Positions 50,504-61,635 of a stretch of DNA of 64,000 nt are shown piece by piece; the first letter of the stretch is position 1, and each line of letters starts with the position of its first letter. The position numbers and the translations under genes are program-made. The DNA lies in assembly GCA_029204225.1 (NCBI GenBank), contig CM055112.1:1027852-1091851 (forward strand). Direction: 5' to 3'. Under the pieces are notes generated by a model that worked only from the letters and a program-made list of their open reading frames with translations, made no database searches and was not told the DNA's origin. Origin of the DNA: Diphasiastrum complanatum (taxonomy: Eukaryota; Streptophyta; Lycopodiopsida; Lycopodiales; Lycopodiaceae).

Positions 50504-50609
50504 GGGTTTTGACATTCTGCGATTAAGTTTTTCGCGAGTTGTGTGAGTTTTCTTTGTGTAGACATTCCTCAAAATCATAGCACATGGCATGCCATCAAAT
50601 TGGAGATCT
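50504..50609 (+). repeat. Left terminal inverted repeat of the Mutator-like element
   Basis: It pairs with 61509-61635 in inverse orientation. The best block is 'taagtttttcgcgagtt' against 'taagttttttgcgagtt' on the opposite end. The right copy is about 20 bp longer through a small insertion. Confidence 0.85.
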
Positions 50610-50631
50610 TTGACGGAGGGACGCGGGCGAG

Positions 50632-50702
50632 TGAATCTGAAGGAGATATTGTTATGAAAAATGCCTTAACGGATATGTATTGTTTACTGTCATATATGTG
50701 CT
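50632..50702 (-). pseudogene. Fragment of the ParB-methyltransferase gene
   Basis: 'gtgaatctgaaggagatattgttatgaaa', and on to 'tgttgt/tgtttac', matches 55735-55806 in the first exon of the methyltransferase gene, with about five changes in 70 bases. It lies just inside the left inverted repeat. It may be a relic of an end-proximal gene copy or a gene-conversion patch. Confidence 0.85.
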
Positions 50703-50779
50703 GAGATGTATATATGGGTTTTTAGTTTTTTTTTATTTTCTTTTGTTTGTTTTTTTTTTTGACAAGCTTGACGTTAGTC

Positions 50780-52110
50780 GAAAAAAGCTTGAATTGTAAA
50801 ACTGAGTTTGGTTAAAAAACTTGAGTCAGGATCAAACAATGGAGTATTTCAGAAAATGGTGTATCGAAAAATTGCTAACTCGAAAAAACTGTAACTTGAA
50901 ACACTTTGACTTGAAAAAACTGACTCGAAAAAATGATGAAAAAAATCAGTGTACTGATGACTCGAAAAAATTGTGACTCGAAAACCGTTAACTAGAAAAA
51001 ACTTTCGAAAAAACTATGATTCAAAAAACTGATGGTTCGAAAAAATTGGTGACTCGAAAAACTGTGACTCGAAAATGGTGACTCGAAAAACTGATGGCTT
51101 GAAAAAATTGGTGTATCAGAAAACTGATGCCTCAAAAAACTGTGACTCGAAAAACTGGTGGCTCAAAAAAAATTGGTGTATTGGAAAACTGACTAAAACG
51201 ACTTTGACTCGAAAACACTGCGACGCGAAAAACTAATTGCTCAAAAAAATTGGTGTATCAAAAAATTGATGAATCGAAAAAACCGATGACTCGAAGAAAA
51301 TGTGACTCGAAAAAACTACGACTTGAAAAGACTGCGACTCAAAAAACTGATGGATGAAAAACTCATGACTCAAAAAACTATGACTCGAACATTGGTGACT
51401 CAAAAAACTATGCCTCAAAAAACTGTGACTCGAAAAAATTGGTGTATCAAAAAATTGACGTTTCGAAAAAACTGATGACTCGAAAAAACTATGACTCGAA
51501 AAAACTACGAATCAAAAAAACTGTGACTTGAAAAAACTCTGACTCGAAAAATTCATGGCTCGAAAAAATTGATGACTCAAAAAATTCTGCCTCGAAAAAC
51601 TAATGACTCGAAAAAATTGGTGTATCGGAAAACTGATGACTCGAACAAACTTGGAATCAAAAAAAATTGTGACTCAAAAAAACTATCTCTAGAATAACTT
51701 GTAGCTCGAAAAAATTGGTGACTCAAAAAATGGATGACTTGAAAAAAGAATGGCAAGAAAAAACAGGTGGCTCGAAAAAATTAGTGACTCGAAAAATTGA
51801 TGACTCGAAAAATTGAGTGGCGCGAAAAAATTGGTGGCTCGAAAAAAGTATGAATAAAAAAATATGCAGTATCGAAAAAACAATGGATCGAAAAAATAAT
51901 GGTGGATCGAAAAATTGGAATGACTCCAGATTTTGGAGTGAATCGAAAAATATGACTCGAAAAATTGATGACTCACAAAAAAGAGTGGCTCGAAAAAATA
52001 ATGAAGGCTCGAAAAATCAATGGAGTATTGAAAAATGAACGAGTATCGAAAAAATAACGAAGTATCGAAAACGTAACGAAGTATTAAAAAATTGACAAAG
52101 TATCGAAACA
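50780..52110. repeat. Minisatellite of 'gactcgaaaaaactg' units
   Basis: About 1.3 kb of short units of 14-20 bp built on 'gactcgaaaaa' with variable tails ('ctgatg', 'ctgtg', 'ttggtgtatc'). No two neighbouring units are fully alike. Its frames (FFES, SHQFF) are repeat translations. It lies 3' of the methyltransferase gene within the element. Confidence 0.95.
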
Positions 52111-58038: not shown

Positions 58039-61000
58039 TTGATTATTGTGGTTCAAATTTTACTAATGGCTATTATCACAATAGCATTCAATAATACAAA
58101 GATGATGTATGAGCCAACAATAGGAAATGATACGATTACTGAAGAGGAAGTGCTTTCAAGTGTTTTTGGCCTGACCAAAGCAAACATAAAAGCTTTTCAT
58201 TCCATAACCCAGGAATCTGTCAGCTCTCCTCTCTTGATTCCGTGTGAATATTTTATTGCTGAAGATGCTAAAACTTTCATAATTGAGTGTGCAGTCGGTA
58301 CAAGAATTGTTGTGCATGGAAAATTCAATGAAATTGCCAAGGTTGTCATGGATCAACAAATGTCTGTTGATACCTTGGGTTGTATTGAAGGTACAACTTG
58401 TAGTCCAAAATATGTTTTGTGTGGACATTTGTCCAACACCTCATCATCAAAAGAGACAATGTCTGTGATGGATTTGGTGTGACAATTGCCTCCAAAAAGT
58501 AAGCTGAAGAAGTTGGTGGAGCAGAGCAATACTGTCAGAGAGGTCAGTGAATTGCCATCAAGATATGATGGTGACTGCATTTTTGAGTTGCCGCCAGTTG
58601 ATGAACATCAAAGTTCTATGTTTGGAATGGAGCAAAGTGCAGATGGTCATCCCTGGATCCGGTATGCAACCTCGACTATCATTAATTTTAAAGGGGATGT
58701 TCGCATATCCACTTTTGGTGGCTCTTTTGTGTGTGGCAATATTCAATGTGGTTTTTTTTGGAAGAGCAAATATGTCACAATGGAAAGGAAGATTGGTTGT
58801 TCATTGTGCAATTGGAAAAGTGGAAAAAAAAAATGGTGGGTTTTGTTGTTTTCATTGTAGCAATAAGCTAACTTTTGTGAACTCTTGTAATGCCAAAATA
58901 TACTATGTCATACTTCCCGATATCAGGTTTACAAGACTGACAATACATGTGGATAAGCATTTTCATGAGGTTGCAAAAGGTCAATGCCGAAACAAAAGCG
59001 AGATCGTCAAAAACTTGGTGCAGGAACAAATAGAGAAACTGCCTGGAGTTGGACAAAAAAAAAATAGAGAAGACAGTGGCCAAAGAGATAATTATGAAAG
59101 GGTTGATTCTTGACGACCCTACTGATGTTCACATGCTATCAACAGAAAAATTTGAAAAGTTACTAGATCAATTGCAACCACTTACCTATTAAAGGAGGTA
59201 ATTTCTTGTTTGGTTTTCATGTTCTTTGACCTAGTTTATCATCTTGGTATTGTGTGTGAATAAATTGTTACACTATATTAATTTGTGCTTTTTGCAAGCT
59301 TCAAAAATGGATAGATGAATACAAATTGGAAAATCATCCTAAAGCAGATTCTGTTGAATCTATTTTCCACTCAAAAGAGAAGTGCCAGTATGATTATTTC
59401 CAAGGGTCATTGTTTCCAGGGCAACTTATAGATGGCACGATTGACAAATGTTTTGTGTTCAAGATGTCTATTGTAGGTCCTGCATCTGGGGTGGATCTAG
59501 TGAGGCGTATGCAAAAAGAAAATGATTTGGAGCAATCATGGATCTGTTTTGATCATGTAAGGAGAGTGAGAGACTGGAGCACGATGGCTGCCCATGTTTA
59601 TGATCACAGGTTAGACTCATCTCTATATCTTTGACTTTGTAATATTTTGTTCAATCACAATTTGAATGAGATAGACATATACTAATTTTCACAAACCAAT
59701 TTTAGCATACAAAGCCTGCAACCGATTGTTGTGTGTGAGATGAAAGTTGACGACACTAAAGCACAAATTAAATTTTGGGAGATGTTGAATGCCATGATGC
59801 ACAAACATGGTGTGGATGTGGTGCAATTCAAAGGATTCATGGCAGATGAGGCTACAGCTAATTGGAAGGCAGTCAAAATAGTTTATGGAGAAGGAGAACC
59901 TGTTATAATGGAAGGGAGAAAGAGATCATGTCTCTTTCAATCCAAGGATAGCCTACAAAAACATACCAACCAATGTATTCTGCAAGAATTTAGAGGTAAA
60001 CATGTATCCCTTTGTGAGTCTTGGCGTTTGGCTGATAACAACATGGATGCCAACACAAAGTATAATGTGGTTAGGACTTTTTGGCGTTCTGGAGCTACAT
60101 ATGCCTCACAAATTTTAGCCTTGGAGGCATGATTATCATGGTGGCATGTTAGATATTCTCATTGGGACAGATACATGAAATCTGTGAGTCTTTTATGACC
60201 TTAGAATTGTGTTGTTTGTGTGAGCTCTAGGTACTATGCTGCAAAAGAAAATAAAAATTTAGTGACTATTAAACAATATCTGATATTTTCCATTGCATGT
60301 TTGGACTCTCTCTCTCTCTCTCTCTCTCTCTCTCTCTCTCTCTCTCTCTCTCTCTCTCTCTCTCTCTCTCTCTCTCTCTCTCTCTCTCTCTCTCTCTCTC
60401 TCTCTCTCTCTCTCTCTCTCTCTCTCTCTCTCTCTCTCTCTCTCTCTCTCTCTCTCTCTCTCCCCATTAGAATTATGCCATTGGTAAATTTCAAAAATTA
60501 AAGATAATCATTCAAGATTCATGTCAATTCTAGGTATTGGATGATGGCGAAATAGCGATGATGCCCACTATCAATTTGTCGAAGTCCAAACATGGAAGCT
60601 GGTTGGCAACTAAAAGTTACAAGGCACAATTGTCGTTGTATGAAGCTTGTGTTGGTGATATGGTAAATGCAATTTTGCGAAGTGCTTGCTATGCATCATA
60701 TCCTAAAGGCAGACACATTGGCATGGGTCCGAGCATGGAAAAATTGTTGAGGAGAGTGTCTTCCAAAAAGACAACTATCATTCAAGGAACCTCTTTTGTT
60801 AATTTTGTGCGAAACACCGTGGACCATGCCTCTTTGTCATCCATTTCATAAGTTGTGTATCAGATCTCCATTCAGATAGTCAGAATCTGTGACTCCTTGA
60901 CATGTATTTGTGAGGATCTCAAGTCCATGCTGGCAAAAGGGAAGTTCACTCCATGCAAACATATGTACTTTGTTTACGTGGTTGTATTGGATTGGACATT

Positions 61001-61075
61001 GACAACAATATCTGCATCCACCAGCCACATCTTTCACACATAGAGCTCTTCCAAATTTTGAGTAGGAGTAGGAAT
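58039..61075 (+). pseudogene. MuDR-type (MULE) transposase gene
   Basis: This gene encodes the enzyme that would cut and join the element's ends. Parts in order: an N-terminal segment (58080-58480); WIRYATSTIINFKGDVRIST (about 58655); cysteine pairs CSLC and CCFHC; a FLYWCH/GCM-like finger (CNAKIYYV ... TRLTIHVDKHFHEVAKGQC, 58890-58990); exon about 59299-59609 (DGTIDKCFVFKMSIVG ... DWSTMAAHVYDHR); exon 59706-60183 with the DDE part (VVCEMKVDDTKAQIKFWEML; FKGFMADEATANWKAVKIVY; KRSCLF); an intron with a CT tract; and an exon from about 60534 ending in a SWIM finger (TCICED ... PCKHMYFV, 60903-60962). Breaks: TGA at 58480, frame changes at 10-base A runs (58824-58833, 59055-59064), TGA at 60130, TAA near 60849 and a shift after the SWIM finger (downstream frame ICIHQPHLSHIELFQIL). 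Confidence 0.85.
60306..60462. repeat. (CT)n microsatellite in a transposase intron
   Basis: About 157 bp of uninterrupted CT, inside the intron between the DDE exon and the SWIM exon. Confidence 0.98.
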
Positions 61076-61508
61076 ATGCCTTGTATGCACTGAGTGTTGG
61101 TGTTAGGACCTTTTTTTTTTGTTAATGGTGCAAACCATTGCGCAGGCTTTGTGGCATAGGAGAATGCAACGCTCTTTCAAAGTGATTCACTTCACAATTA
61201 CTATCTTTCTACATAGTTTTGTATTAAAAAACCTGTTCGAATATTGAAAGTGTTGTTCTTTGAATCACACGCCAACTTTTTGATAATAATTGATGCGCCA
61301 TAATTTGTTTCATTGGTTGATTTGGTGTAGACAACTATTTTTTGTTGATTGTACTTTTAATCATAAATGAACTTTCTGAAGAAAAATAATTAGCCATGTT
61401 TTGTTTCATTCTTTGCTTTGTTATGAGAACAACACATATGTAGATGGACACAGATGGTCATATTCAGATTTTTCAGTGTAGAAGAAATTGGCATGCTTTT
61501 GACATAAT

Positions 61509-61635
61509 TGGATTTCAAATTGGTGGCACACCATGTGCCATAATTTTTTGGATGTTTTTTAAATTCGCAACACAAAAAGTGTTGCTCAAAACTCGCAAAA
61601 CTCGCAAAAAACTTACTTGCAAAATGCCAAGGCCC
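61509..61635 (-). repeat. Right terminal inverted repeat of the Mutator-like element
   Basis: Its reverse complement begins GGGCCTTGGCATTTTGCAAG and follows the left end through 'taagttttttgcgagtt', 'agcacatgg/ggcacatgg' and 'tgcca'. The 9-bp flank aggacaagc (61636-61644) follows. Confidence 0.85.

What the first reader, a model, noticed from the sequence alone, without database searches (positions are those of the whole stretch)
50504..61635. A Mutator-like element that carries its own prokaryote-type DNA methyltransferase gene
Seen: long inverted ends, 9-bp near-duplicated flanks, and inside them a MuDR-type transposase gene head to head with a gene joining a ParB-like domain to permuted methyltransferase motifs. 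Known: Mutator relatives make 9-bp duplications, and some (Arabidopsis VANDAL) carry anti-silencing genes, but I know of no plant Mutator-like element with a ParB-methyltransferase. Inference: the enzyme may mark the element's ends, protect it, or counter silencing.
Basis: partly seen in the sequence, partly recalled or inferred. Interest (0 to 1): 0.95.

Follow-up and report, generated by a model that had tools for sequence, protein, structure and literature searches.

The report
Plant jumping gene with methyltransferase gene
An old, broken plant jumping gene carries, next to its transposase gene, a gene for a bacterial-type DNA-methylating enzyme, and the same two genes recur side by side in diverged relatives across the same genome, so the pairing does not look like an accident.

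Summary
Window 50504-61635 is a precise 11,132-bp insertion: inverted ends, and a related empty site in the same window showing a 9-bp target duplication. Inside, a SWIM-bearing transposase gene and a DNA methyltransferase gene stand head to head, both broken. The methyltransferase call is firm through a relative in the same genome (Pfam N6_N4_Mtase E=2.8e-9; PDB profile hits DpnA and CcrM), but its motif IV is never DPP[YFW] in 21 copies. The ParB domain is not confirmed by any test. In the 1.74-Gb plant genome 27 of 150 listed N-terminal-exon hits have a transposase hit within 15 kb, 25 head to head; on large contigs 19 of 120, against 0.4 by chance. The two genes diverge together (16 pairs, r=0.85) and are constrained between deep lineages. 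Many copies are unpaired in these capped lists. ParB-methyltransferase genes in algal transposons are already in print (PMC12477816), so this is a new variant of a known kind: a Mutator-type element in a land plant.

The parts
50504..61635 (.). whole element, 11,132 bp
   Evidence: inverted ends and related empty site
50504..50613 (+). left end; the part shared with most other listed left-end matches is up to about 110 bp
61588..61635 (-). right terminal inverted repeat core, 48 nt, extends inward with gaps
50495..50503 (+). left 9-bp target duplication AGGAAAAAC
   Evidence: empty site AGGAAAAGC
61636..61644 (+). right 9-bp target duplication AGGACAAGC
26782..27416 (-). related uninserted copy of the flanking repeat (paralogous empty site)
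50630..50692 (+). 63-bp copy (93.7%) of part of the methyltransferase gene's N-terminal exon (55742-55804) in the left subterminal region
50850..52100 (+). degenerate tandem array (GACTCGAAAAA-like units, 14 exact) in the left noncoding part; candidate binding region is inference
53144..56507 (-). methyltransferase gene, 14 open pieces, broken by stops and frame changes
   Evidence: relatives hit PF01555
53782..54093 (-). piece with motif-IV-like ADLVLVDLPTWY
53144..53469 (-). pieces with motif-X-like PVRGSSEKSQ and motif-I-like LGTGTS
58066..60848 (+). transposase gene, 8 open pieces, broken
59707..60129 (+). transposase core exon, query
60903..60962 (+). SWIM-type motif CxC(x14)CxH of the transposase
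   Evidence: PF04434 in the C1 relative

Best explanation
The locus is an old, no longer coding copy of a Mutator-type cut-and-paste transposon that carries two divergently transcribed genes. SHOWN: precise insertion with a 9-bp duplication; a transposase gene with a SWIM-type motif; a second gene whose C-terminal half belongs, through its relatives, to the permuted N6-adenine/N4-cytosine DNA methyltransferases; recurrence of the two genes head to head in diverged lineages of one plant genome; joint divergence; constraint on both between the deeper lineages. INFERRED: the second gene makes an element-encoded accessory protein that uses its N-terminal domain to bind the element's own DNA, perhaps the subterminal tandem array, and modifies it or occupies it there. 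This would help the element escape silencing or mark it for transposition, in function like VANC of Arabidopsis VANDAL elements. Copies that lost the transposase but kept the ends could be moved in trans. I hold the anatomy at about 0.9 and a self-directed accessory role at about 0.5; whether it acts through catalysis is open.
For: Ends, target duplication and empty site; second TSD-flanked copy. Methyltransferase: PF01555 E=2.8e-9, 37.7 bits against a cut-off of 26.7, in relative L091 (an exon of the C8 gene); 9 of 10 aligned members match PF01555 at E up to 1; PDB profile hits DpnA 3.6e-5 and CcrM 2.5e-4; profile-profile 95% with phage methyltransferases. tblastn of the C8 protein matched 683 phage records at E up to 10 (best listed 2e-4); the 25 listed lie over its C-terminal part and most are annotated as methyltransferase. 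SWIM 20.6 bits against 19.6. Pairing: 27 of 150 listed N-terminal-exon hits have a transposase hit within 15 kb, 25 head to head; large contigs 19 of 120, null mean 0.38, maximum 3 in 2000 shifts. Joint divergence: 16 de-duplicated pairs, r=0.852, 0 of 5000 permutations. Constraint between deeper lineages: N-terminal exon dN/dS 0.10-0.18 in 9 of 21 pairs (11 saturated, 1 close pair 0.54); transposase 0.04-0.07 in 4 of 6 pairs (2 saturated). Plant: NAM (NAC) family, 98 matches, 0 of 14 control genomes.
Against: Many methyltransferase-gene loci are not paired in the capped lists: only 24 of 262 clusters on C1-C24 have a listed transposase hit within 15 kb. Two unpaired, well-preserved loci showed no transposase match in about 4 kb upstream. 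C16 keeps the ends and the methyltransferase gene but lacks the transposase core, and its methyltransferase gene is itself damaged. Motif IV is not canonical in any of 21 copies. The N-terminal domain has no assigned fold. Between the two younger groups of the N-terminal exon dN/dS is 0.51-0.60, so constraint there is weak. Without the window, C9_65M and C5_24M pairs r drops to 0.637, with 42 of 5000 permutations reaching it. The tandem array gave no match in C16 and was not found near several other left ends. No methylation, binding or expression data.
Confidence: 0.5

Rival explanations
1. The second gene encodes a catalytically dead or altered methyltransferase fold that serves as a DNA- or SAM-binding regulator. 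It is still an accessory protein but does not methylate DNA.
For: Motif IV reads D-[LFW]-P-[STLM] in place of DPP[YFW]: 0 of 21 copies are canonical, 20 of 21 keep the proline at position 3, 18 of 21 keep the D. Motif I is well kept, as for a SAM binder.
Against: Constraint across deeper lineages and a good PF01555 match over motifs X and I; a variant motif IV does not prove inactivity.
Confidence: 0.3
2. Pack-MULE style passenger: the element captured a host or symbiont methyltransferase gene by chance, and it does nothing for the element.
For: Mutator-like elements are known to capture gene pieces (PMC6431247, passages). This copy even holds a 63-bp piece of its own second gene.
Against: Same orientation in 25 of 27 pairs, joint divergence, constraint between deeper lineages.
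Confidence: 0.08
3. The methyltransferase gene belongs to a mobile or duplicating family of its own that repeatedly sits beside or inside Mutator-type elements, so the pairing is convergent rather than inherited.
For: Many more methyltransferase-gene loci than pairs in the capped lists. The C8 gene is well preserved and has no transposase match within 7.4 kb upstream.
Against: Largely fixed head-to-head geometry and correlated divergence. C16 shows that a copy without the transposase core can be an internally deleted paired element.
Confidence: 0.1
4. The transposase is not Mutator-type but another DDE superfamily with 9-bp duplications.
For: No Pfam MULE match in any sequence tested.
Against: SWIM match, long inverted ends and 9-bp duplications in two insertions fit Mutator; the CxxH pattern (CLFH in relatives) is recalled as shared by MULE and hAT.
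Confidence: 0.07

Closest known systems
Sola1-1_Ec32 of the brown alga Ectocarpus (PMC12477816, passages read)
   Same: DNA transposon with an accessory gene on the strand opposite the transposase; 1104-aa product with a ParB-like domain and an N4/N6 DNA methyltransferase domain; authors suggest binding and modification of the transposon itself
   Different: Sola1 superfamily, 21.5 kb, brown alga; here Mutator-type, 11.1 kb, plant. Sequence homology of the two proteins was not tested, and ParB is not confirmed here
Green and red algal transposons with similar proteins (Iyer 2011; Petroll 2025, as cited in PMC12477816; neither work was held)
   Same: reported to encode similar proteins
   Different: superfamily and detail unknown to me from any call
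Arabidopsis VANDAL elements with VANC (PMC10398659, passages read; called MuDR families in PMC12730594)
   Same: Mutator-type element with an accessory gene; VANC binds noncoding tandem repeats of its own family and counters silencing; a subterminal tandem array is also present here
   Different: VANC is not described in those passages as a methyltransferase; here the accessory gene is a methyltransferase homologue, and anti-silencing is inference
Phage and prophage ParB-methyltransferases, e.g. Wolbachia phage WO (PMC3089641 passages; Pfam N6_N4_Mtase plus sub-threshold ParB_N)
   Same: methyltransferase domain related (profile-profile 95%)
   Different: the N-terminal domain showed no relation; phage context
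Fungal TET/JBP-carrying DNA transposons, and SET-carrying oomycete MuDR and Harbinger (PMC12730594, passages)
   Same: DNA transposons that carry a DNA- or chromatin-modifying enzyme
   Different: different enzymes

Membership tests
Mutator-like element (MULE/MuDR) | target duplication of about 9 bp | tested here: met
   window 9 bp with an empty site; C16 perfect 9 bp
Mutator-like element (MULE/MuDR) | long terminal inverted repeats | tested here: met
   48 nt at 81%, gapped past 100 nt
Mutator-like element (MULE/MuDR) | transposase matches Pfam MULE domain | tested here: not met
   no match in the window pieces, the window read-through or the relatives tested; I therefore write Mutator-type, not proven MULE
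Mutator-like element (MULE/MuDR) | SWIM zinc finger in the transposase C-terminus | tested here: met
   PF04434 20.6 bits, cut-off 19.6, in the C1 relative as a separate piece (the same stretch inside the longer L058 read-through was not reported); motif CxC(x14)CxH in the window
Mutator-like element (MULE/MuDR) | placement in a transposase phylogeny | not testable with these tools
   no collection of eukaryotic transposases was on hand
N6_N4 DNA methyltransferase (beta-like, permuted) | Pfam PF01555 above cut-off | tested here: met
   in one relative, the C8 gene: exon L091 37.7 bits, longer model of the same gene 35 bits, cut-off 26.7; C1 relative 20.7, below it; window copy itself no match
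N6_N4 DNA methyltransferase (beta-like, permuted) | motif IV before motif I | tested here: met
   order in window, C1 and C8
N6_N4 DNA methyltransferase (beta-like, permuted) | canonical motif IV [DNS]PP[YFW] (recalled definition) | tested here: not met
   0 of 21 copies
N6_N4 DNA methyltransferase (beta-like, permuted) | methyltransferase activity | not testable with these tools
   no biochemical or methylation data
ParB/Srx domain | Pfam ParB match | tested here: not met
   0 of 20 aligned copies; C8 model none
ParB/Srx domain | profile relation to phage ParB-methyltransferases | tested here: not met
   probability 0.09-0.15%; scores no better than column shuffles (30 shuffles; 60 each)
ParB/Srx domain | ParB/Srx fold | tested here: inconclusive
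   model pLDDT 46.9; Foldseek best E 0.26, no ParB named in the 50 of 231 rows shown
ParB/Srx domain | short motif hx[DA]GHxRxxA (own pattern) | tested here: inconclusive
   DGNHR in 14 of 22 copies, against hx[AD]GHxRxxA in 22 of 25 phage references

The most novel reading that the evidence does not exclude
In a land-plant genome a Mutator-type transposon lineage has long kept a divergently transcribed, prokaryote-type N6/N4 methyltransferase homologue with a conserved, so far unclassified N-terminal domain and a variant motif IV. It may be a self-targeting epigenetic accessory that marks or un-silences the element, an enzymatic counterpart of VANC.
Probability: 0.35. Interest if true: 0.85.

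Novelty: new variant of a known kind. Interest (0 to 1): 0.66.

Why it matters
If the accessory protein acts on the element's own DNA, land plants have a transposon-borne source of 6mA or 4mC, or of a methyltransferase-fold regulator. That would give a direct test of the debated role of 6mA in plants and of how Mutator elements escape silencing. The genome holds many copies in several lineages, so the target sequence and the mark can be looked for in long-read data. It also extends the algal transposon-methyltransferase theme to a different transposon superfamily in a plant.

Tried and rejected
A minus-strand CxC...CxH reading at 60846-61121 first looked like an inverted SWIM exon (no Pfam match). 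The C1 relative showed that SWIM is on the plus strand, so it was dropped. Single-sequence AlphaFold of the N-terminal exon was useless (pLDDT 31). Scans of IMG/VR with three window exons confirmed no relative, and phages gave no match to the window read-through. PHROGs found nothing and NCBIfam only one weak, unrelated match, to EzrA. PDB matches of single window pieces were judged chance. A PDB profile of the N-terminal exon gave mainly alpha-actinin at E about 0.01 (11 rows up to E 5), judged chance. Removing a suspected insertion from that alignment did not rescue ParB. I considered that the frame breaks are assembly errors: several lie at homopolymers, but in-frame stops elsewhere argue for decay; not settled. 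The species is named by no call; 1.74 Gb, contigs C1-C24 of about 11-102 Mb where the calls show a length, and the NAM family say plant, and my guess of a clubmoss (Diphasiastrum-like) is recall only; brought no paper to settle it.

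
Full report
WHAT IS THERE. The window belongs to a 1,744,706,496-base assembly of 5176 contigs (contig C21). It is a plant: the NAM (NAC) family, recalled as plant-specific, gave 98 exon matches and none in 14 control genomes; that it is a land plant is recall from that family. At 50504-61635 lies an element of 11,132 bp. Its ends are inverted repeats (39 of 48 positions; gapped alignment score 96 against at most 54 in 500 shuffles and at most 73 in 1966 random pairs of the same window).

THE INSERTION IS SHOWN BY AN EMPTY SITE. 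The left flank (49974-50501) and the right flank (61636-61745) both match one continuous stretch on the minus strand at 27416-26782 (89.5% and 90.9%). That stretch reads AGGAAAAGC at the joint; the flanks read AGGAAAAAC and AGGACAAGC, one private change each. So the target duplication is 9 bp and the borders are exact. A second copy with homologous ends, C16 1377875-1389545, has the perfect duplication AAGCCTTGA.

THE TWO GENES. On the plus strand, eight open pieces at 58066-60848 make a transposase-like protein, followed by a CxC(x14)CxH motif at 60903-60962. In the relative on C1 the same place scores as SWIM, 20.6 bits against a cut-off of 19.6, when scanned as a separate piece; the longer L058 read-through that contains this stretch gave no match. 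Pfam's MULE model matched none of the sequences tested. On the minus strand, fourteen open pieces at 56507-53144 make the second gene. The ATG codons chosen for the two models are 1558 bp apart. Both genes are broken: in-frame stops and frame changes separate pieces. Some frame changes lie at homopolymers and could be assembly errors; stops elsewhere argue for decay.

THE METHYLTRANSFERASE IS REAL BUT UNUSUAL. The window copy itself gave no convincing match. Relatives in the same genome do: L091, an exon of the C8 gene, matches N6_N4_Mtase at E=2.8e-9, 37.7 bits (cut-off 26.7), and 9 of the 10 aligned C-terminal exons match that family at E up to 1. A longer model of the same C8 gene scores 35 bits, and the C1 copy 20.7, below the cut-off. 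Three of the eleven C-terminal pieces fetched (L082, L084, L085) were left out of the alignment because their frames were broken. A profile of the alignment finds DpnA (3.6e-5) and CcrM (2.5e-4) in the PDB, and profile-profile comparison with phage methyltransferases gives 95%. The motif-IV-like stretch precedes motif I. It reads D-[LFW]-P-[STLM] and never DPP[YFW] in 21 copies (20 loci and the window): 18 of 21 keep the first D, 20 of 21 the proline at position 3. So a catalytic amino-methyltransferase is plausible but not assured.

PARB IS NOT CONFIRMED. The N-terminal exon (55711-56229) has 151 matches in the genome, with CWDGNHR as its best motif. Pfam found no ParB in 20 copies, a PDB profile search found only hits judged chance, AlphaFold with 22 sequences reached pLDDT 46.9 and no significant fold match, and profile-profile comparison with 25 phage ParB-methyltransferases gave 0.09%, no better than shuffled columns. 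The phage reference itself matches ParB_N only below its cut-off (22.9 bits, cut-off 26.3), so ParB is not excluded; it rests on a short resemblance.

IS THE PAIRING ACCIDENTAL? It does not look so. Of 150 listed N-terminal-exon hits, 22 have a listed transposase hit within 15 kb, 20 of them head to head. With 30 further transposase hits this is 27 of 150, 25 head to head and 2 on one strand; some of these sit on small contigs that look allelic to large ones. On C1-C24 it is 19 of 120, against a mean of 0.38 and a maximum of 3 in 2000 shifts. Protein distances of the two genes correlate: 18 pairs r=0.889, 0 of 5000 permutations (with two near-duplicate pairs); 16 de-duplicated pairs r=0.852, 0 of 5000; without the window and C9_65M r=0.751, 3 of 5000; without C5_24M too r=0.637, 42 of 5000.

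CONSTRAINT. Between the deeper lineages the genes are constrained: N-terminal exon dN/dS 0.10-0.18 in 9 of 21 pairs (11 saturated, one close pair 0.54); transposase 0.04-0.07 in 4 of 6 pairs (2 saturated); methyltransferase C-terminus pN 0.17-0.29 with pS 0.74-0.85, all 6 pairs saturated. In younger groups it is weaker: N-terminal exon medians 0.40-0.60 within groups and 0.51-0.60 in the set spanning the two younger groups, methyltransferase C-terminus median 0.43, range 0.24-1.41, transposase 0.20-0.85. Decay of dead copies would raise these values; relaxed constraint is not excluded. Ratios at high dS are rough.

RESULTS AGAINST. The pairing is far from universal. Of 262 methyltransferase-gene clusters on C1-C24, 24 have a listed transposase hit within 15 kb; of those with two or more exon hits 9 of 74, with three or more 4 of 17. 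Conversely 31 of 150 transposase hits have a methyltransferase-gene exon within 15 kb (23 head to head, 6 same strand, 2 tail to tail). Lists were capped at about 150 scored of 328 to 1480 candidates, so these are lower bounds. But two well-preserved unpaired genes (C7 51.27 Mb, C15 27.00 Mb) showed no transposase match in about 4 kb upstream, and the C8 gene none in 7.4 kb. The C16 element shows one way this can arise: it keeps both ends and the methyltransferase gene but lacks the stretch corresponding to window 57896-60759, the transposase core. Its methyltransferase gene also lacks the equivalent of about 53482-54031 and holds an inserted 3.4-kb stretch whose open frames look retroelement-like (recalled resemblance). 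Whether C16 lost the core before or after it inserted is unknown.

SAME ENDS, WITH AND WITHOUT THE GENE. Of 31 left ends examined (of 40 listed; 30 match from within the first three positions, one from position 28), 9 have a methyltransferase-gene exon inward on the opposite strand, all among the 14 best-scoring. The 9 include the window and pairs that look allelic (C21/C136, C16/C3449, C3/C1148), so about 6 separate loci. C17 has only the stretch next to the gene. One search used 18 of the 150 rows; reading the remaining rows by eye added none within the same limits. So copies with the same ends and no listed gene exist too, 22 of the 31, mostly the more diverged ones; what lies inside most of them was not seen.

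HOW IT MOST LIKELY WORKS. Inference: the transposase cuts and pastes the element at 9-bp targets; the second protein binds the element and marks or occupies it. By analogy, VANC proteins of Arabidopsis VANDAL elements bind noncoding tandem repeats of their own family and remove silencing (PMC10398659, passages). Here the left noncoding part holds a degenerate tandem array (50850-52100) that would be the first place to look. Against it, the array gave no match in C16 or in the stretches held for left ends L005-L008. The chief rival is a methyltransferase fold without catalysis.

NOVELTY. [quoted passage not shown] the two works it cites were not held). My ten full-text searches, in open-licence PMC papers only, showed in the rows listed no Mutator-type or land-plant element with such a gene. 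Two of them returned no paper, most returned more papers than were listed, and I read passages of seven papers only. I rate this a new variant of a known kind.

Noticed in passing
34430-35245 and 38696-39511: 816-bp direct repeats, 100% identical, around a copia-type gag-pol open frame (35925-38573): looks like a very young LTR retrotransposon insertion.
   Followed up: no
25248-26324 (+): An open frame whose first part matches the histone fold (PF00125, 4.7e-11) in frame with an integrase match (rve, 9.1e-12): a chimera of a histone-like exon and a retroelement.
   Followed up: no
50630-50692 and 55742-55804: A 63-bp piece of the element's own second gene sits in its left subterminal region; of the left ends, those on C136, C24 and C1 64.56 Mb share it.
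   Followed up: partly
56944-57089: Imperfect 54-nt inverted repeat between the two genes, possibly a small nested element.
   Followed up: no
L080, L091-L094 (C8 33.09-33.10 Mb): A well-preserved methyltransferase gene of a distant lineage with no transposase match within 7.4 kb upstream, near an open frame that looks like a Myb/telomere-repeat-binding protein (recalled resemblance): a candidate for domestication.
   Followed up: partly
contig C136 34373-50612 (not fetched whole): An apparent allelic copy of the window element: both ends, the transposase exon and methyltransferase exons hit, but no N-terminal-exon hit in the list and a larger span of 16.2 kb.
   Followed up: no
L054/L030 (C1 69.93-69.94 Mb): In the C1 copy the transposase N-terminal piece lies inverted relative to the rest of the gene.
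   Followed up: no
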